The notes beneath the pieces were generated by a model. It was not told the DNA's origin and did not search any database. It was given only the letters and a program-made list of their open reading frames with translations. This document shows, piece after piece, positions 47,414 to 56,762 of a DNA stretch of 64,000 bases. Location of the stretch: positions 1,178,001 to 1,242,000 of the forward strand of contig NZ_CP063845.1 of assembly GCF_021018745.1 (NCBI RefSeq), given 5' to 3'. A program made the translations under genes and the position numbers. Within the stretch, counting starts at the first letter, position 1; every line of letters starts with the position of its first letter. This stretch comes from Gloeobacter morelensis MG652769. Its GTDB lineage: Bacteria > Cyanobacteriota > Cyanobacteriia > Gloeobacterales > Gloeobacteraceae.

Positions 47414-48046
47414 TTGTCTGGACAATCCTTGAGCGAGAGCGGACCTTCGAGCGGCAGACCCTGGCCCTACGCCTCTCCGGGCATTCCGGACGAGTGGTTC
47501 GAGCGCATCCCGGGCATTCCCCTCTCGCCTCGGGAGGTGCGGGTGCTGATGCTCTCGCAGTTGCGCCTCAGTTGTCGGCTGCGGTTCTGGGATATCGGCG
47601 CCGGGACCGGAACGCTCCCGGTGGAAGCGGCCTTACTGTGTCCCACCGCCCCGATCGTTGCCATCGAGCGCGACGAAGAAGTAGCGGAGCTTATCGAGCG
47701 CAACTGCCGCAAATTTGGGGTCACCAATGTGCAGGTTGAGCGCGGCAGTGCCCCCGAATGTCTCGCCGACCTCGCAGACGATCCCGATCGCGTTTGCATC
47801 GAAGGGGGACAAGCTTTGGCCGGTATCTTGCACTCGGTCTGGCCGCGGCTGAAGGCGGGGGGACGGGTGGTGGCGGTCACTTCCACCCTCGAAGGACTCT
47901 ACCGTCTCACCGAAGGGTTCGCCGAACTGCAGGCGCGCCAGGTGGAGGTGGTGCAGGCGGGCATTTACCGACTGGAGCGGCGAGGTGCCCAGCAGGCTTT
48001 TATGGCCCTCGATCCTACCTTTGTGCTGAGCGGCGAAAAAATCTAG
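47414..48046 (+). CDS. cbiT: Precorrin-6Y/cobalt-precorrin C15-methyltransferase, CbiT type
   Basis: The 210-residue protein has a CbiT-type SAM-dependent methyltransferase domain: GIPLSPREVRVLMLSQLRL (the conserved GxPxTKxEVR-like start), RFWDIGAGTGTLPVEAALL, VAIERDEEVAELIERNCRKFGVTNVQVERGSAPECL, and VWPRLKAGGRVVAVTSTLE. It methylates C15 with decarboxylation in cobalamin/corrin ring synthesis. Start at TTG 47414; no better one is present. No other cob gene is in the window. It ends overlapping the 3' end of the nuclease-like gene on the other strand. Confidence 0.87.
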   Translation: MSGQSLSESGPSSGRPWPYASPGIPDEWFERIPGIPLSPREVRVLMLSQLRLSCRLRFWDIGAGTGTLPVEAALLCPTAPIVAIERDEEVAELIERNCRKFGVTNVQVERGSAPECLADLADDPDRVCIEGGQALAGILHSVWPRLKAGGRVVAVTSTLEGLYRLTEGFAELQARQVEVVQAGIYRLERRGAQQAFMALDPTFVLSGEKI

Positions 48047-49500
48047 GCATCGCGCATCAGTTCGGGGTCGGCGTGTACCTGCACCCCCATCGAGCGGATG
48101 AGTGCCAGACTTTCCTCGGGGCCGTCGATGTGCTGGTCTTCGCCAATCCAGTAGGTGTGAATATTCAAAGCGCCCAGGAAGGTCACAAATTCGCCGATGG
48201 GAGGGCGCTCGAAGACGGCGGCCATGGCGATTGGATAGCCTTCCTCGCGCCAGGGTGCCAGCGCAAAGCGCTGGTAGTAGAGCAGTTGGCCGACCGTCTC
48301 CTGGATGGCTTCGGCCAGATCCTGCTGGCCGAGCACCTTGATTTCGGCGAGTAACACCTGTTGTTCGTCGATGGCCAAAAAATCGAAGGTATCGGCGTCC
48401 TCGCGCACCTCTTTGCCCGCCAGGCGAAACCAGCGCCGGAAGTGGGTGAGCACTTCGTCGTGACGGGCGGTGCGCTCCAGTTGGCGGCGGCGGCGACGCT
48501 CGGCCAGCAGCGGATCGCGGGCGCTGCCGCCGGGGACGCCGCTTTTTTGGTAGGCGGGTTTTTCGTCGGGGTCGATGACGAGCCTGCCGCCGCTCGGGCG
48601 CCCGCGATCGCGCTCGGTCGGCAGCACCGGTAGCGCGAAGCGCGGCGAGAGCGGTTCGCCCGCAGGCGGTGCATCGAGATGAGTCAGCAGGCGGCGATTG
48701 AGCGGATGCTCGGGATCGGCTTCAAAAAGAGCCGCGAAGATCGCTTCTGTCAGGCCAAAATCGCGGCGGAACTGTTCGGGGGTGACCGTCGCCCGGCCCT
48801 TGGCCAGTTGGGGTGCTCCGAAGTAGAGGGCCGCCAGCAGCGGATAAACCGGCAGCGCCTGACCCACCGGTACGAGCGCTTGCCACATCGGCACCGTCCA
48901 GGCCACCCGGCTGAGGCGAGCCTGGCGGCCCCGGCCGAGCACCTGCAAAAACTTGGGCAGACCCGGTTGCCAGCCGCAGGGATTGCCGTCGAAGCCGCAC
49001 TTCTGGCGGCCCTGGTCGATCACCAGGGAGGTGTGGCCATCGTAGACCCGAAATGGGCACAGGTCGCGGTCGCCTTCGAGAAATTCGACATCCTGCCAGA
49101 AGTGGATGGCGGCTGCGTGACAGCCGATGCCGCGCTGGCCGTTGCACAGCTTGTGCCAGCGAAAATCGCCTTCGGCACTCGACTGCGGCAACAGCGGCAG
49201 GGGCACCCCTTCGCTATCCAGGTTCAAGATAGGCCAGACGAGCGCTTCGTCCTTGGGACCGTGGGGCAGGCGCCCGTCGCTTTTGCGGTAGAGGCCGTCG
49301 CAGATGCGCTCGGCCACCGCATCGAGGCCGATGCCTTCGCTGCTGCCCACCACCGGCACCAGTTCTTGAAAGTACTGCACCGCCAGGGCCACCTCGAAGG
49401 CCCTAGCCTGGACTCCGCCCGCGCGGGCCAAGTGATGTGCAAGCAACCGGCCCGCCAGCAAATACAGGTCGTAGCGCTCAAGCGGCAGTGCGTAATCCAT
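48043..49500 (-). CDS. Large protein with C-terminal PD-(D/E)XK nuclease-like domain
   Basis: The 485-residue protein starts at ATG 49500. The first 330 residues are of unknown type (YDLYLLAGRLLAHHLARAGG, ICDGLYRKSDGRLPHGPKDEALVWPILNL). The C-terminal 130 residues show a restriction-nuclease-like core: DADTFDFLAIDEQQVLLAEIKVLGQQDLAEAIQETVGQLLYY, with Asp in DFLA and the EIK of the motif, and a Gln/Tyr-rich helix. It is coupled to an XRE regulator 4 nt upstream. No methyltransferase is adjacent, so a standard restriction-modification system is unlikely. A defence nuclease or repair enzyme is possible. Confidence 0.6.
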   Translation of the reverse strand: MDYALPLERYDLYLLAGRLLAHHLARAGGVQARAFEVALAVQYFQELVPVVGSSEGIGLDAVAERICDGLYRKSDGRLPHGPKDEALVWPILNLDSEGVPLPLLPQSSAEGDFRWHKLCNGQRGIGCHAAAIHFWQDVEFLEGDRDLCPFRVYDGHTSLVIDQGRQKCGFDGNPCGWQPGLPKFLQVLGRGRQARLSRVAWTVPMWQALVPVGQALPVYPLLAALYFGAPQLAKGRATVTPEQFRRDFGLTEAIFAALFEADPEHPLNRRLLTHLDAPPAGEPLSPRFALPVLPTERDRGRPSGGRLVIDPDEKPAYQKSGVPGGSARDPLLAERRRRRQLERTARHDEVLTHFRRWFRLAGKEVREDADTFDFLAIDEQQVLLAEIKVLGQQDLAEAIQETVGQLLYYQRFALAPWREEGYPIAMAAVFERPPIGEFVTFLGALNIHTYWIGEDQHIDGPEESLALIRSMGVQVHADPELMRDA

Positions 49501-49504
49501 CGGC

Positions 49505-49777
49505 CTACAACCTCCCGTCTTCTCCACAGAGCAACCAGGTCACCGACACCCCGAGCGCCCGCGCGAAGCCCACCAGCTCCCAATCGACGACCCGGCGCTT
49601 GCCGTTTTCGATTTGTCCGATTTTGACGTAGTCGAGTTCCAACCCGTAGCGGCACAGCCGCCCCGCCAACTCGTCCTGGGTCAGCCCCAGCCGCTCGCGC
49701 AGGTAGCGCACCTGCGGTCCGATCAAATTGGTGGGGCGGGTGCCGTGGTTAGGGTTAATCGCATCTGCGTGGGACAT
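49505..49777 (-). CDS. XRE-family helix-turn-helix regulator
   Basis: The 90-residue protein from ATG 49777 contains a Cro/CI-type HTH: QVRYLRERLGLTQDELAGRLCRYGLELDYVKIGQIENGKRRVVDWELVGFARALGV, with standard helix 2-3 (LTQDELAGRL, YVKIGQIENG). The unusual insertion CRYGLELD between helices is also seen in some C-protein-like regulators. It stops four bases before the nuclease-like gene starts, so it probably autoregulates the pair. It is divergent from the sigma factor gene. Confidence 0.82.
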   Translation of the reverse strand: MSHADAINPNHGTRPTNLIGPQVRYLRERLGLTQDELAGRLCRYGLELDYVKIGQIENGKRRVVDWELVGFARALGVSVTWLLCGEDGRL

Positions 49778-49957
49778 GATCGAAAATCGAAAATTGCTGA
49801 AAGAACTTCGCATCAGAGACAAGAAAGCTCTCACCCAGGTTGGATTTATCCTAACCCTGTAAAAAATCTTAGCTGATGATCGATTTTCGTTTACAGCCGT
49901 TTGCAAGATTTCCTTAATGTTGAGACATCCGGCAGCCAGATGAGAGGGAGAGGAACG
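49778..49957. promoter_or_regulatory. Divergent spacer with inverted copies of CGAAAATCGA
   Basis: CGAAAATCGA at 49781-49790 (directly before the XRE ATG, in the direct repeat CGAAAATCGAAAAT) recurs in inverted orientation (TCGATTTTCG) at 49880-49889. Both are close to the divergent genes' starts and could be operator half sites for the XRE protein. This is an inference from position only. Confidence 0.4.
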
Positions 49958-50995
49958 GTGGTGAGAGCGAGGCACCGCGATTTGGAGGAGCAACCCTTTA
50001 GCCTTGATGAGGGCAATCTGCCCTCCAGGAGCGAGGCCCAGGGTAGTGACGACCTGGTCGATCTCTATCTCAACGAGATTGGTCGCATCCCGCGGGTAAC
50101 CCCTGAGGAAGAAATTCATCTGGCCCGCCGCATCCAGGCGAAGCTAGGCATCGACGCGGCGCGCGAGGAGCTGCTGGTCATGCGACTGGGTCGGCCCTCG
50201 GCGGAGGAGGATGTGGCTGCCTTTATAGGCTGCGATCCCAAGGCCCTCATCGAGGCGACCCGCCAGGGGCTGTGGGCGCAGCGCAAGCTCATCAACGCCA
50301 ATTTGCGCCTGGTGGTCTCGATCGCCAAAAAATACATCGGTCGCAATGTGCCCTTTCTCGATCTCATCCAGGAGGGCAACATTGGCCTGATGCGCGCCAC
50401 CGAGAAGTTCGACCCCGAAAAAGGCTACCGCTTCTCGACCTACGCCACCTGGTGGATCCGCCAGAGCATCACCCGCGCCATCGCCAACCAGGCGCGCACG
50501 ATTCGCCTGCCCATTCACATGGTTGAAAAAGTGCGCAAGGTGCGCCGCGAGATGCGCATGGCGACGCTAGAACTGGGCCGGCGGCCGAGCGAGGACGAAC
50601 TCGCTTCCCGTCTGGCGATCAAAGTCAAGAAGCTGCGCACCATTCAAGAAGTCTCCCGCCAGCCGGTGTCCCTCGACATGCCCGTGGGCAGCGAAGGGGA
50701 CATTTCACTGGGCGAGATGATCGAGGACGGCACCGCGGAGCGGCCCTTCGACGAACTGGTACAAAAAGCGCTGGCAAGCGAACTGTACGCGGCGATGAAT
50801 GTACTTAAGCCCGTAGAGCGCGAGGTTCTCGCCCTGCGCTTCGGCCTCAAAGGTGAAGAGGCCCTCACCCTGCGCGAGGTGGGTGAGCGCTTCGATCTGA
50901 CCCGTGAGCGCATCCGGCAGATCGAATCGGAAGCGCTGCGCAAGCTGCGGCGCAGCAAGCGCAAGCAGATCCTGGAGCAGTATGTAGGCAGGTAA
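49958..50995 (+). CDS. RNA polymerase sigma factor, group 2 (SigB/C/D/E-like)
   Basis: Sigma-70 family protein of 345 residues from GTG 49958; GGGAGAGG lies five bases upstream (ATG 49940 is the alternative). All regions are visible: region 1.2 (DLVDLYLNEIGRIPRVTPEEEIHLARRI), 2.1-2.4 (NLRLVVSIAKKYIGRNVPFLDLIQEGNIGLMRATEKFDPEKGYRFSTYATWWIRQ), 3 (IRLPIHMVEKVRKV) and 4 (LREVGERFDLTRERIRQIESEALRKLR). Its short N-terminus without region 1.1 and overall size fit a cyanobacterial group 2 sigma factor, used under stress or nutrient change. Confidence 0.93.
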   Translation: MVRARHRDLEEQPFSLDEGNLPSRSEAQGSDDLVDLYLNEIGRIPRVTPEEEIHLARRIQAKLGIDAAREELLVMRLGRPSAEEDVAAFIGCDPKALIEATRQGLWAQRKLINANLRLVVSIAKKYIGRNVPFLDLIQEGNIGLMRATEKFDPEKGYRFSTYATWWIRQSITRAIANQARTIRLPIHMVEKVRKVRREMRMATLELGRRPSEDELASRLAIKVKKLRTIQEVSRQPVSLDMPVGSEGDISLGEMIEDGTAERPFDELVQKALASELYAAMNVLKPVEREVLALRFGLKGEEALTLREVGERFDLTRERIRQIESEALRKLRRSKRKQILEQYVGR

Positions 50996-52095: not shown

Positions 52096-52686
52096 CTATT
52101 CGATGAGTGCCTTGAGGTCTTCTTTGAGCTGCAGCATGCCCTTGCGCGCCCAGCGCTTGATGGTGCCCAGCGGGGTGCCCGTCTGGGCGGCGATCTGCGG
52201 ATAACTCAGGCCGCCAAACACGCTCAGTTCGAGCACCTGGCGCTCCTTGAGGGGCAAACTGGCCACCGCCTCGCGCACCCGCTCGCAGCACTCGTCGACG
52301 GTGGCCCGCTCCAGGGGAGTCACCCCGGAGGGTTCGCCCAGATTCACCTGGCCGACCCGCTCGACCATCTTGAGTTTGCGGCCGCGGGCGCGCAATTTGT
52401 CGAGGGCGCGCGAGCGGGTGAGCAACATCAAATAGCTCGACAGCGAACCGCGCTCCGGGTTGTAGCCGCCGCCGCGCCAGAGGCTCAAAAAGATCTCCTG
52501 GCTGAGGTCTTCGGCCTCCTGAGGATTTTTGAGAATGGACAGGGCCAGGCCATAGACGACGCTCGCATAGCGGCGGTACAAGCTCACCATCGCCGTGCGC
52601 TCACCTGAGCGCAGGGCATAGAACAGCTGCGCATCGCTCGGTTGGGCCATCGATTCGGACAATTCGGTAGTCGCCATGGTTTGCAT
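52096..52686 (-). CDS. ECF-type sigma factor
   Basis: From the ATG at 52686 the protein has 196 residues with region 2 ([69 protein letters not shown] in parts) and region 4 ([48 protein letters not shown]). It lacks region 3, typical of ECF factors (SigG-like group 3 in cyanobacteria). An anti-sigma factor gene is not apparent next to it. A small ORF upstream overlaps the start codon (TGATG). Confidence 0.92.
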
Positions 52687-52859
52687 CACTGTATTTGAAC
52701 CCGATTGCGAAGAAAAGAGAGAACGGGCGCGTCGCGGCGCCTGGCGAGGCACGCGGAGCACGGGCCCGGTGCGGGCGGGGTGGTGAGCGCTCGTTGCGGA
52801 GCGGTCAAGCTCATCAGCTGCTTCCACAGCACAGCCGGTGCGAATCGATTGGCTTCCAT
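52686..52859 (-). CDS. Small ORF coupled to the ECF sigma gene
   Basis: A 57-codon frame starts at ATG 52859 after a G-rich stretch and ends at TGA 52688-52686, sharing one base with the sigma ATG (TGATG). The peptide (MEANRFAPAVLWKQLMSLTA then CSACLARRRDAPV) contains a CxxC motif. A real small regulator or a chance leader ORF are both possible. There is no homology evidence. Confidence 0.22.
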   Translation of the reverse strand: MEANRFAPAVLWKQLMSLTAPQRALTTPPAPGPCSACLARRRDAPVLSFLRNRVQIQ

Positions 52860-53201
52860 GCTTCCCCCCGCTGGGAAATTAACTGCTGAGTATCGACTAC
52901 CTAGCCGCAGACTCCGGGCGGTTGACCGGTTGGGCGGGCAAAATCCAGAAGGAACGGCCAAAGAGCGCCACAGCACCAAGCTTAGGGAACTACACTGGCC
53001 ATATCCAGGGACGATAGGGACGTTAAGGGCTGCTGCGCATTGCATTGCAGTCCAAGGCTCAGGGCCTGCTCCAGGGCGCTTTTATAGAAGATATAGATTG
53101 CTCTGCGATAGCCCCTTAACACCCTTAACTTCCAGAACGGGCGTACATTCTCTAGAGGGCCGCCCGGGTAGGGGCACCTGCATTCCGTGCGAGGAGCGCC
53201 G
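52860..53201. other. Spacer upstream of the first STAND gene
   Basis: In this spacer of about 340 bases lies an element at 53003-53027 (ATCCAGGGAC then GATAGGGACGTTAAG) that is similar in about 20 of 25 positions to a site at 59585-59609 before the second STAND gene. TTTTATAGAAGATATAGA at 53079-53096 may contain a -10 region. No gene was identified. Confidence 0.4.
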
Positions 53202-56200
53202 ATGAACCACCCCCCCAAGGCAAAACGCAGGCGCGGCTTCCGGCTGACCCCCCAGGGCTGGCAGCGACTGCACGAGGCGCGCTGCGAACTGGAGAACCGG
53301 ACGAACGGCGGCGAGCGCTTTACCCTCGAAGAACTGAGCGACCGCATCGGCCTTGATCCGAGCACCGTCGCCAAGGTGCTCACAGCAGAAGAAGGGGTCG
53401 ATAAACAGACGCTCTTTCGCTGCTTCCAGGCGTTCGGTCTGGATCTAGGTTCCGGCGACTATGCTCGGCCGGAAGCGGTGGAGCCCTCGGAGCCGGTCCC
53501 GCCGCGCTCTGCACGTCAGGATTGGGGTGAGGCGGTCGATGTGTCCTTGTTCTATGGGCGCACCGAGGAACTGGCCACCCTCGAAGACTGGCTGGTCCGC
53601 GAGCGCTGCCGGTTGGTGGCGCTGCTGGGTATGGGCGGCATCGGCAAATCCACCCTCGCCGTCAAGCTCGCCCGCCAGACCCAGGAGCACTTCGAGCATT
53701 TGGTCTGGCGCTCGCTGCGCAACGCTCCGCCGCTCGGCGAACTGCTCGGCGAGCTTATCGAGTGCCTGTGCGACAGCCCACCGGTGAACCTGCCCACGAG
53801 CACCGAGGGGCGTCTCTCGAAGCTGATCGAATGCCTGCGCCGTTCGCGCACGCTGTTGATTCTGGATAATGGCGAGTCGCTATTAAGCGGCGCCGAGCAG
53901 ACCGGCACCTACCGCGAGGGCTGCGAGGCCTACGCAGAATTGTTCCGGCAGGTGGGAGAGGTGCCCCACGCCAGTTGCTTGATCCTCACCAGCCGCGAGA
54001 AACCCAAGGAAGTCGCTTCGCTGGAGGGGGCGAGCCTGCCGGTGCGTTCGCTGCGGTTGGGCGGTCTGCGCGAGGACGAGGGCGAAGCGATTCTGGAGGC
54101 GAAGGGGCTCAGCGGCAGCCCCGACGAGCGCCGCAGTCTGGTGGAATGCTACCGGGGCAATCCCCTGGCGCTCAAGATCGTTTCCACATCGATTCAAGAG
54201 TTGTTCGGCGGTGCCATCGGCGAATTTTTTATCCACGGCGCAGTCGTCTTCAACGGTATCCGCAACCTGCTGGAGCAACAGTTCGACCGGCTCACCCACT
54301 TCGAAAAACAGCTGATGTACTGGCTAGCCATCCACCGGGAACTGGTGAGCGCCGCCCAGCTTCGAGAAGACACCGTCCCAGCCGCCCCGACCCCCAGGTT
54401 GCTCGAAGCGCTCGAATCGCTGTTGCGCCGCTCGCTTATCGAGCGCAGTAGCGCAGGTTTTACCCAGCAGCCGGTGGTGATGGAATTTACCGCCGAGCGG
54501 CTGATCGAGCAGGTGTGTGCCGAAATCGAGCACGGACCTATTGCACTGTTGAAATCCCACGCTCTGATGAAGGCCCAATCGAAAGATTACGTCCGCGAGA
54601 CGCAGGTGCGCCTGATCGTGCGGCCCATCCTCGACGAGTTGCTCACCAGCCTGGGCAGCAGGCGCAGCCTGGAGCAGCGGCTTTTTGCCGTCCTGGAAGC
54701 CCAGCGCGAGCACTCGCCCCTAGAACCCGGTTACGTGGGCGGCAATGCCCTCAATTTGCTATGCGAACTGAAAAGCGATCTGGCCGGCCGGGATTTTTCG
54801 CGCCTCGCCATCTGGCAGGCATACTTGCAAAAAGTCAGTCTGCACCGCACAAATTTTGCCGGTGCGGATCTAGCGCGATCGGTCTTTGCCCAAACCTTCG
54901 GCGGCATCCTGTTCGTCGCCTACAGCCCGCATGGGGAATTGCTCGCCATCGGCGACGACAGCGGCGAGGTGCGCCTGTGGCGAGTGCGCGACGGCCAACA
55001 GCAGCTAAGCTTTCGGGGCCATACCGACTGGATCAGCGCCCTTGCCTTCAGTCCCGACGGGAGCGTGCTTGCCAGCGGCAGCGAAGATCAGACCATCAAA
55101 CTGTGGGATACAGCCACGGGGCAGTGTCTGCGCACGCTTACCGGTCACGGTGGTTGGGTGTACTCGGTCGCCTTCAGCCCCGATGGGACGCTGATAGCGA
55201 GCAGCAGCCCCTCCGACGAGACCGTCCGGCTGTGGGATGCGGCCGGCGGTCAGTGCACCCGGACGTTCAAGTCGCGCACGGGTCGGATGTGGTCGGTGGC
55301 CTTCAGTCCGGACGGGCACACCCTCGCCGCGGCAAGCCTCGATCGCACCGTCAAGCTCTGGGATGTGAGAACCGGCGAGCGCCTGGGCACCCTCGCTGGC
55401 CACACCGACCAAGTACTCTCGGTCGCCTTCAGTCCCGACGGCGGTGTGCTGGCCAGCGGCAGCCACGACCAGACCCTCAAACTCTGGAAAGTGACGACCG
55501 GTACCTGCCTGAGCACCCTCACCGGCCACACCGGCCGCATCCGCGCGATCTCCTTCAGCCCGGACGGAGAATGGCTGGCCAGCAGCAGCCTCGATTGCAC
55601 CGTCAAGCTCTGGGACGCAGCCACAGGCGCATGCCTGCGCACCTTCACCGGCCACAGCGGCCAGGTCTGGTCGGTGAGCTTTGCCCCGGACGGCCAGACG
55701 CTAGCGAGCGGCAGCCTCGATCAAACCGTGCGGATCTGGGATGCGGCCACCGGCCAGTGTCTGCGCACGCTGCAGGGCAACGCCGGCTGGATCTGGTCGG
55801 TGAGCTTTGCCCCGGACGGCCAGACGCTAGCGAGCGGCAGCCTCGATCGCACCGTGCGGATCTGGGATGTACCCTCGGGCCGTTGTGTGCGCACCCTCAC
55901 CGGCCACAGCAGTTGGGTGTGGTCGGTGGCTTTTAGCCCCGACGGCCGCACCCTGGCCAGCGGCAGCTTCGATCAGACCATCAAACTCTGGGATGCGGCC
56001 ACCGGCCAGTGCCTGCGCACCCTCTCGGGCCACAACAACTGGGTGCGTTCGGTGGCTTTTAGCCCCGACGGCCACACCCTGGCCAGCGGCAGCCACGACC
56101 AGACGGTGAAATTGTGGGAGGTTTCCTCCGGCCAGTGCCTGCGCACCCTGACTGGTCACAGCAGTTGGGTGTGGTCGGTGGCTTTTAGCCCCGACGGCCG

Positions 56201-56762
56201 AACGGTGGCCAGCGGCAGCTTCGATCAGACCGTTCGGATCTGGAATGCCGCTACAGGCGAATGCCTCCATACGCTCAAAGTCGACAGCAGCCAGGTGTGG
56301 TCGGTGGCCTTCAGCCCGGATGGCCGCACCCTGGCAGGCGGCAGCGGCAACTACGCCGTCTGGCTCTGGGACACGGCCACCGGCGAGTGCCTGCGGACGC
56401 TTACCGGGCACACCAGTCAGGTGTGGTCAGTCGCCTTCAGCCCCGACGGCCGGACGGTCGTCAGCAGCAGCCACGACCAGACGGTCAGACTCTGGGACAC
56501 GGCCACCGGCGAGTGCCTGCGGACGCTCACCGGGCACACCAGTCAGGTGTGGTCGGTGGCTTTTAGCCCCGACGGCCGCACCGTCGTCAGCGGCAGTCAG
56601 GACGAAACGATTCGGCTGTGGGACAGTCACACCGGCCAACCCCTCGAATTGCTGCGCGCCGACCGGCTCTACGAGGGCATGGACATCACCGGGGTGACGG
56701 GTCTGACCGACGCCCAAAAGTCGATGCTCCAGGCTTTGGGGGCAGTGGAGGCGGCAGGCTAA
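53202..56762 (+). CDS. STAND ATPase: HTH-like, NB-ARC and 14 WD40 repeats (paralogue 1)
   Basis: The 1186-residue protein (ATG 53202) begins with a basic helical/HTH-like domain ([38 protein letters not shown]). An NB-ARC ATPase follows with Walker [16 protein letters not shown], Walker B-like [12 protein letters not shown] and GNPLALKI. After a helical linker with an ISxLxxANFAGADL-like section, 14 WD40 repeats of 42 residues start at about 560 ([23 protein letters not shown] type), consistent with two seven-bladed propellers. The tail is [25 protein letters not shown] proteins assemble on ligand binding; some act in phage defence. The ligand is unknown. Confidence 0.93.
55668..56560 (+). 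repeat. Near-identical WD40 blade repeats in paralogue 1
   Basis: Blocks starting at 55668 and 55794 (TGGTCGGTGAGCTTTGCCCC onwards) and at 56368 and 56494 (GGGACACGGCCACCGGCGAG onwards) are almost the same for 55 or more bases, in each case 126 bp apart. These are duplicated WD40 blades. Confidence 0.75.

What the first reader, a model, noticed from the sequence alone, without database searches (positions are those of the whole stretch)
48043..49777. XRE regulator coupled to a PD-(D/E)XK nuclease-like protein without a methyltransferase
Seen: the HTH gene stops four bases before a 485-residue protein whose C-terminus has DFLAID then LLAEIK and AIQETVGQLLYY, a nuclease core pattern. The first 330 residues match nothing I know. 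Known C-protein/restriction pairs always have a methyltransferase; here neighbours are cbiT and a sigma factor. This could be an undescribed self-controlled nuclease or defence module.
Basis: partly seen in the sequence, partly recalled or inferred. Interest (0 to 1): 0.65.

Follow-up and report, generated by a model that had tools for sequence, protein, structure and literature searches.

The report
Ancient lone restriction-like nuclease, switch-linked
An early-branching group of cyanobacteria has kept a DNA-cutting enzyme that looks like a restriction enzyme without its partner methylase, in one operon with a small regulator that also faces a sigma-factor gene across a strongly conserved control site.

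Summary
A 90-aa XRE gene ends 4 bp before a 485-aa protein (NUC) with an intact PD-(D/E)XK core, and no DNA methyltransferase lies beside them. Each half of NUC has a distant relative encoded beside a C5 DNA methyltransferase, so NUC is best read as a solitary restriction-type endonuclease. It does not look like a mobile defence island. The arrangement sigma70 gene / shared intergenic / XRE-NUC is fixed in 8 of 9 genomes of the order (the ninth is inconclusive: its sigma match lies 85 bp from a contig end). It is the only gene cluster that recurred across genera there. A 19-bp element, GTRAAYGAAAATCGATCAT, lies between sigma and XRE and occurs exactly once per genome in those eight. In two more distant cyanobacteria (family f26) XRE, the element core and the sigma gene stay together while NUC lies elsewhere. 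So XRE belongs first with the sigma gene, and NUC rides in its operon; "self-controlled nuclease" is only partly right. Of four DNA-methyltransferase families searched, only the Dam type is in all nine genomes, a testable guess about what NUC spares. Cutting, operator binding and any defence role are inferred, not shown.

The parts
48043..49500 (-). NUC: 485-aa two-domain restriction-type nuclease
   Evidence: ORF; 8 of 9 genomes of the order; whole-gene dN/dS 0.12, 0.20 and 0.14 in the three comparisons with the window gene that could be computed (NG86)
48649..49500 (-). NUC residues 1-284: N-terminal domain shared with proteins encoded beside DNA cytosine methyltransferases; C127, C148, C168 invariant (metal site inferred)
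   Evidence: hhalign 98.9% probability, E 1.2e-17, 257 columns
48046..48549 (-). NUC residues 318-485: PD-(D/E)XK nuclease domain
   Evidence: AlphaFold2 mean pLDDT 84.8; VIA-align Z up to 9.7
48382..48384 (-). D373 codon, catalytic Asp (inferred)
   Evidence: invariant in 9 of 9 and 10 of 10 with the distant L065
48337..48345 (-). E386-x-K388 codons, catalytic E-x-K (inferred)
   Evidence: invariant in 9 of 9 and 10 of 10 with the distant L065
49505..49777 (-). XRE-family regulator, 90 aa
   Evidence: orthologues aligned from 10 genomes, LDYVKIGQ stretch invariant
49778..49789 (-). O2: CGATTTTCGATC directly before the XRE start codon
49876..49894 (-). O1: GTAAACGAAAATCGATCAT, conserved control element
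   Evidence: 0 mismatches exactly once per genome in 8 of 8 genomes of the order with NUC; core also between XRE and sigma in G177 and G332
49940..50995 (+). divergent sigma70 factor (SigA-family type, not the most conserved sigma of the genome)
   Evidence: TIGR02997 above cut-off; reciprocal best match of the G177 sigma beside XRE; beside XRE-NUC in 8 of 8. The start at 49940 is my choice of ATG; the ORF opens at TTG 49901

Best explanation
NUC is a solitary restriction-type endonuclease, inherited vertically in Gloeobacterales. Its N-terminal, probably metal-binding domain recognises DNA, and its C-terminal PD-(D/E)XK domain cuts it with metal ions (fold by prediction, activity inferred). 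It is co-transcribed with XRE (inferred from the gaps). XRE binds partial dyads (CGA-WWW-TCGATC) in the region shared with a divergent alternative sigma70 gene (sites shown, binding inferred), and switches both directions together, so the nuclease is released with the sigma response (inferred). The XRE-operator-sigma unit can exist without adjacent NUC (shown in two genomes). The host is spared by low dosage, by the resident Dam-family methylase, or both (inferred).
For: NUC domain and active site. REase kinship: the N-terminal domain matches a protein (L027) with a C-terminal NOV_C domain that stands beside a C5 and an N6 methyltransferase and a Roseomonas plasmid frame that overlaps an annotated DNA cytosine methyltransferase gene by four bases; the C-terminal domain matches a 499-aa ORF directly behind the end of a C5-methyltransferase frame. 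Fixed trio in 8 of 8 genomes, XRE-NUC gaps -4 to +9 bp. O1 once per genome in 8 of 8; its core with XRE-sigma in 2 of 2 f26 genomes. CGAWWWTCGATC: 17 occurrences in 333,622 bp (window and 20 of the loci held), 15 upstream of XRE and 2 inside XRE. Purifying selection, strongest in the nuclease domain. Dam-type methylase in 9 of 9 genomes.
Against: No cutting, binding or expression data exist. Foldseek gave no PDB match at E <= 0.001 for either model; the best VIA-align Z of 9.7 is only somewhat above the 7-8 that the tool calls usual for models without a clear match. The N-terminal fold is unresolved (pLDDT under 50 over most of residues 103-193). No REase of known specificity was matched. The C-terminal match to L065 is weak (85% probability, 75 columns). 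NUC and XRE are unlinked in G177 and G332, so XRE need not control NUC there. No sigma70-type promoter was found around the genes. The DNA counted for CGAWWWTCGATC was chosen around these genes and is no genome-wide rate; in the window, at up to 1 mismatch, 4 matches stand against 1.55 expected, and 6 of 100 shuffles reach 4. One neighbour in G392 is an AAA ATPase that resembles defence ATPases.
Confidence: 0.55

Rival explanations
1. Housekeeping DNA-metabolism nuclease: NUC was recruited from a restriction enzyme to DNA repair, recombination or handling of incoming DNA, and is switched on with the alternative sigma factor under stress.
For: Order-wide retention in single copy, fixed link to a sigma gene, purifying selection; structural neighbours include EndoMS and Hjc.
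Against: The N-terminal domain is shared with proteins next to DNA methyltransferases, which suggests sequence-specific recognition; structural neighbours also include restriction enzymes such as BsmI, FokI, PaqCI and BstEII.
Confidence: 0.22
2. Self-controlled defence pair: XRE is a C-protein-like regulator of NUC, and the sigma gene is a bystander.
For: XRE upstream and coupled in 8 of 8 genomes; weak PADLOC control-protein match, E 3.1e-6.
Against: XRE, the operator core and sigma occur without adjacent NUC in two f26 genomes; XRE matches other XRE families about as well as control proteins.
Confidence: 0.13
3. Toxin-antitoxin pair: XRE neutralises or represses a toxic nuclease.
For: Small regulator gene overlapping or nearly touching the nuclease gene; weak match of XRE to the Y4mF antitoxin family, 28.3 bits against a cut-off of 71.65.
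Against: NUC is kept without adjacent XRE in two genomes and XRE without adjacent NUC; no patchy distribution inside the order.
Confidence: 0.06
4. Inactive remnant of a lost restriction-modification system.
For: No linked methyltransferase.
Against: Catalytic residues invariant; dN/dS of the nuclease domain 0.00, 0.11, 0.08 and 0.07 in the four comparisons with the window gene (NG86); open frame without inner stops in 10 genomes.
Confidence: 0.04

Closest known systems
Solitary (orphan) Type II restriction endonucleases (PMC3488263: outline, abstract and passages seen)
   Same: Restriction-type nuclease with no linked methyltransferase; systems with a distant methyltransferase are described there.
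   Different: Here it is fixed across an order, coupled to an XRE gene and tied to a sigma gene with a conserved element. The main text of that paper holds 0 occurrences of 'cyanobacteri' or 'Gloeobacter'.
C-protein controlled restriction-modification systems (search listing only)
   Same: Small HTH gene directly upstream of a restriction-type gene, with dyad-like sites before the HTH gene (comparison partly recalled).
   Different: No methyltransferase; the regulator and its site also stay with a sigma gene without the nuclease.
Nostoc-like protein L027 with NOV_C domain beside C5 and N6 methyltransferases (genus is a guess)
   Same: Shared N-terminal domain (257 aligned columns), with three aligned invariant cysteines.
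   Different: C-terminal domain is NOV_C, which NUC does not match; it has linked methyltransferases.
COG4636 PD-(D/E)XK proteins abundant in G. violaceus (PMC551604: abstract and passages seen)
   Same: PD-(D/E)XK fold, no methyltransferase association reported.
   Different: Those are many and without recurrent neighbours, mostly with a migrated Lys; NUC is one copy with a classic E-x-K and fixed neighbours. No direct comparison of sequences was made here.

Membership tests
PD-(D/E)XK nuclease superfamily | core fold with helix, three strands, helix, strand | tested here: met
   Model of residues 318-485, pLDDT 84.8, H28-43 E47-51 E55-60 E65-71 H78-96 E107-113; best Z 9.7, 109 aligned, 3.0 A
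PD-(D/E)XK nuclease superfamily | conserved D and E-x-K | tested here: met
   D373, E386, K388 invariant
PD-(D/E)XK nuclease superfamily | metal-dependent DNA cleavage | not testable with these tools
   needs purified protein
Type II restriction-modification system | linked cognate DNA methyltransferase | tested here: not met
   none among the neighbours scanned (not all ORFs); C5 methyltransferases in 5 of 9 genomes, absent from three that have NUC
Separated Type II system with distant methyltransferase | a methyltransferase present wherever NUC is | tested here: inconclusive
   Dam-type PF02086 in 9 of 9 genomes of the order, but only four families were searched, the f26 genomes were not searched for it and the specificity of NUC is unknown
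C-protein regulators | dyad operator upstream of the C gene | tested here: inconclusive
   partial dyad sites O1 and O2 are there, binding not shown
C-protein regulators | match to C-protein families above other XRE families | tested here: inconclusive
   PADLOC control protein E 3.1e-6, Pfam HTH_31 E 4.2e-9, NCBIfam Y4mF antitoxin E 1.2e-6 below its cut-off
Anti-phage defence system | recurrent location among defence genes or mobile elements | tested here: inconclusive
   NUC has no PADLOC match. Of 20 neighbouring ORFs run against PADLOC at E 1e-5, 16 had no match; the 4 matches were the cbiT-like methyltransferase (twice, orthologues), one AAA ATPase in G392 and one desaturase-type match in G386. 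Not every ORF was run, and some may be shadow ORFs
Anti-phage defence system | protection against phage | not testable with these tools
   needs phage challenge

The most novel reading that the evidence does not exclude
A restriction enzyme was domesticated into a sigma-factor stress circuit: XRE reads sites that contain GATC, the Dam-family methylase marks both those sites and the chromosome, and loss of GATC methylation (as on invading or newly replicated DNA) both opens the XRE-sigma switch and makes DNA cuttable by NUC. That would be a methylation-sensing, sigma-linked restriction response.
Probability: 0.1. Interest if true: 0.8.

Novelty: new variant of a known kind. Interest (0 to 1): 0.5.

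Why it matters
Type II restriction enzymes without their methylase are expected to be toxic (PMC3488263, abstract). One kept across a deep-branching cyanobacterial order, next to one conserved control site shared with a sigma factor, suggests a lasting cellular job. It gives a direct test of how an orphan restriction-type nuclease becomes safe and useful, and it names a regulator-operator pair (XRE/O1) that can be assayed at once.

Tried and rejected
Tried without result: NUC against plasmids (E 1e-5) and phages (E 0.01), no match; N- and C-terminal profiles in viral contigs, none confirmed; PDB sequence profiles, no credible match; Pfam scan of the 9 members of A1, four families each in one member, best E 0.0091; the N-terminal REase-type domain in phages and XRE in plasmids, none; promoter scan of 47900-50100, none found.

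Rejected: the G026 match (45 residues, two stops) as spurious. The 12 three-mismatch hits of the 19-mer (1 each in G000, G386, G388, G389, G391, G393; 2 in G390; 4 in G392; 0 in G387) as chance, since the reversed control pattern gave 15 in all (0-4 per genome). A C5 methylase as the universal partner (absent from G389, G390, G391). That the sigma gene is the genome's primary sigma: another G000 sigma is 80% identical to its G177 counterpart while this one is 58% (6 G000 and 5 G177 sigma genes compared).

Limits: NG86 dS could not be computed in 6 of 22 comparisons and YN00 failed in 15 of 22. A1 held 9 of the 10 NUC orthologues. L027 and L028 are 99% alike and count as one witness. In one search an overlap filter dropped some XRE and sigma ORFs, which one search recovered; the neighbourhoods compared span 7.7 to 20 kb. 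PADLOC was run on 20 neighbouring ORFs only.

Full report
What is there. The window lies in G000, a 5.1-Mb genome. Window 48043-49500 (-) encodes NUC, 485 aa, and 49505-49777 (-) encodes XRE, 90 aa, 4 bp apart. NUC has no listed match in Pfam, PADLOC or NCBIfam at a limit of E = 10. XRE is an HTH_31/HTH_3 protein. From contig lengths shared, G389 is presumably Aphanocapsa lilacina HA4352-LM1, and G391 and G392 the Gloeobacterales bins ES-bin-141 and ES-bin-313.

Distribution. NUC is in 8 of 9 genomes of the order, one match each, the seven others at 57-97% identity to the window protein. In 386 genomes of the phylum, 6 matched: the own genome, two f26 genomes full-length at 54%, two (G103, G245) over residues 29-276 only, and one spurious match that I dropped. 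Profile searches of 386 genomes found 5 with the N-terminal and 4 with the C-terminal domain. Nothing was found in plasmids or phages and nothing was confirmed in viral contigs.

Nuclease domain. The whole-protein model is poor (pLDDT 59.9), but residues 318-485 folded alone reach pLDDT 84.8 and pTM 0.80. VIA-align puts it closest to 1y88 (Z 9.7), XisH 2okf (9.3), Cdn1 (8.8), Can2, BspD6I and, lower, BsmI, McrBC, FokI and Hjc (that these are PD-(D/E)XK folds is recalled for most rows). Foldseek E-values stay above 0.001, and Z near 9 is only somewhat above the tool's usual level for models without a clear match. D373, E386 and K388 are invariant in 9 of 9 orthologues and in a distant relative. 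Whole-gene dN/dS against the window gene is 0.12, 0.20 and 0.14 in the three comparisons that could be computed, and 0.00, 0.11, 0.08 and 0.07 for the nuclease domain in four (NG86).

Restriction kinship. The N-terminal domain matches, by profile comparison (98.9% probability, E 1.2e-17, 257 columns), a set of three sequences. Two are near-identical proteins from G103 and G245. The G103 protein (441 aa) has a C-terminal NOV_C domain and sits beside a C5 and an N6 DNA methyltransferase. The third is from a Roseomonas mucosa plasmid, where the matching frame overlaps a gene annotated DNA cytosine methyltransferase by four bases. Three cysteines (127, 148, 168) are invariant across all 12 rows, which suggests a structural metal site (inferred). 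The C-terminal domain independently matches a 499-aa ORF in G340 that begins at the end of a C5-methyltransferase frame; this match is weaker (85% probability, 75 columns). Each half therefore has a relative in a restriction-like setting. This supports origin, not present function.

Methyltransferases. Of the nine genomes, C5 methyltransferases (PF00145) are in 5, N6_Mtase (PF02384) in 7, N6_N4_Mtase (PF01555) in 5 and Dam-type (PF02086) in 9. G390 has NUC but no PF00145 or PF01555 match and only one short N6_Mtase match (24 bits, positions 23-71, above the 20.4 cut-off), so among these four families the Dam-type enzyme is its only clear candidate protector. The two Dam-type proteins that I ran (G000, G386) score above the Dam-family cut-off (TIGR00571). 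PMC4390886 (passages) reports GATC-methylating DmtA orthologues in both Gloeobacter strains then known. Other methyltransferase families were not searched, and the f26 genomes were not searched for methyltransferases.

Control region. In 8 of 8 genomes of the order with NUC, XRE lies -4 to +9 bp from NUC and a sigma70 gene diverges from XRE. Across genera only these three families recurred in the neighbourhoods compared (7.7-20 kb; some sigma and XRE ORFs were dropped there by the overlap filter and were recovered). Of 20 other neighbouring ORFs run against PADLOC, 16 had no match at E 1e-5; the four matches are the cbiT-like methyltransferase twice, one AAA ATPase beyond the sigma gene in G392 (best model mads_3, E 1.3e-30) and one desaturase-type match in G386. 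No defence gene recurs across genera. A 19-bp element, GTRAAYGAAAATCGATCAT, occurs with 0 mismatches exactly once per genome in the 8 genomes, always in this intergenic region, with no 1- or 2-mismatch copy elsewhere; the 12 three-mismatch copies are at control level (15). A second copy of the core, CGATTTTCGATC, lies directly before the XRE start codon in the window, and TTTTCGATCAT or TTATCGATCAT is there in 6 of 8. CGAWWWTCGATC occurs 17 times in 333,622 bp (window and 20 loci): 15 upstream of XRE, 2 inside XRE of G386 and G387; L021 has a one-base variant of O1. With equal base frequencies about 0.3 would be expected (my arithmetic); the DNA was selected, so this is only a guide. In the window the exact pattern occurs twice, both here; at up to 1 mismatch there are 4 matches against 1.55 expected, and 6 of 100 shuffles reach 4.

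The turn in the story. In f26 genomes G177 and G332, the XRE orthologue (68%) stands divergent from the sigma orthologue (57-58%, reciprocal best match in G177) with the element core CGAAAATCGATCAT between them (2 mismatches to the 19-mer), while NUC is far away in G177 (677 kb versus 2,862 kb) and on another contig in G332. No element was found near NUC there (L025 and L026). The XRE stretch LDYVKIGQ is invariant in all 10 rows. XRE with its site therefore belongs with the sigma gene, and NUC is a passenger in the XRE operon of Gloeobacterales, or was separated from it in f26. G393 has the sigma orthologue 85 bp from a contig end and no detected XRE or NUC, so it does not decide.

Reading. 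Shown: predicted fold and active-site conservation, REase-related domains, fixed gene order, conserved element, separability. Inferred: cutting, DNA recognition by the N-terminal domain, co-transcription, XRE binding, joint control with sigma, protection by Dam methylation, and any role in defence. The half-site TCGATC contains GATC; a link to Dam methylation is a lead only.

Literature. Searches for Gloeobacter with restriction and methyltransferase terms (7 of 7 listed), solitary or orphan restriction enzymes (9 of 9), Gloeobacter sigma factors (15 of 44), XRE-nuclease-sigma combinations (10 of 14), NOV_C, Gloeobacter defence (3 of 3) and XRE with group 2 sigma factors (8 of 48) listed no paper whose title or abstract start describes this locus. 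I saw passages of PMC4390886, PMC551604 and PMC11119718, and the outline and passages of PMC3488263. The library lacks most subscription papers.

Noticed in passing
window 49876-49894; L105 7089-7107; L106 7417-7435: Conserved XRE-sigma control element that persists in f26 genomes without adjacent NUC: a likely ancient XRE-sigma70 regulatory pair in early-branching cyanobacteria.
   Followed up: partly
L023 10757-10768, L024 10927-10938: An exact copy of the operator core lies inside the XRE coding sequence in G386 and G387; it overlaps codons of the conserved QIEN stretch, so it may be due to coding constraint.
   Followed up: partly
window 53187-56762: Large 1191-aa protein with many WD40 repeats and a Walker-type GMGGIGKST stretch in its N-terminal half (seen by eye); several repeats look nearly identical.
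   Followed up: no
window 52099-52827: A second sigma70-type gene (regions 2 and 4 only) lies about 1.1 kb beyond the end of the trio's sigma gene, overlapping the frame of the ALAD ORF.
   Followed up: no
L022 6532-8265: In G392 an AAA ATPase with PADLOC matches (mads_3, PtuA, GajA models) lies just beyond the sigma gene; not seen at this place in the other genomes scanned.
   Followed up: no
L027 7393-13522: Restriction-modification cluster with an N6 and a C5 methyltransferase and a NOV_C protein, near a recombinase-like ORF and a NifD-like ORF (last two seen by eye): possibly carried on a nif-region element.
   Followed up: partly
L065 50-1914: A 499-aa REase-like ORF begins at the end of a C5-methyltransferase frame in G340; its own best PADLOC match is weak (REase_II, E 0.026).
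   Followed up: partly
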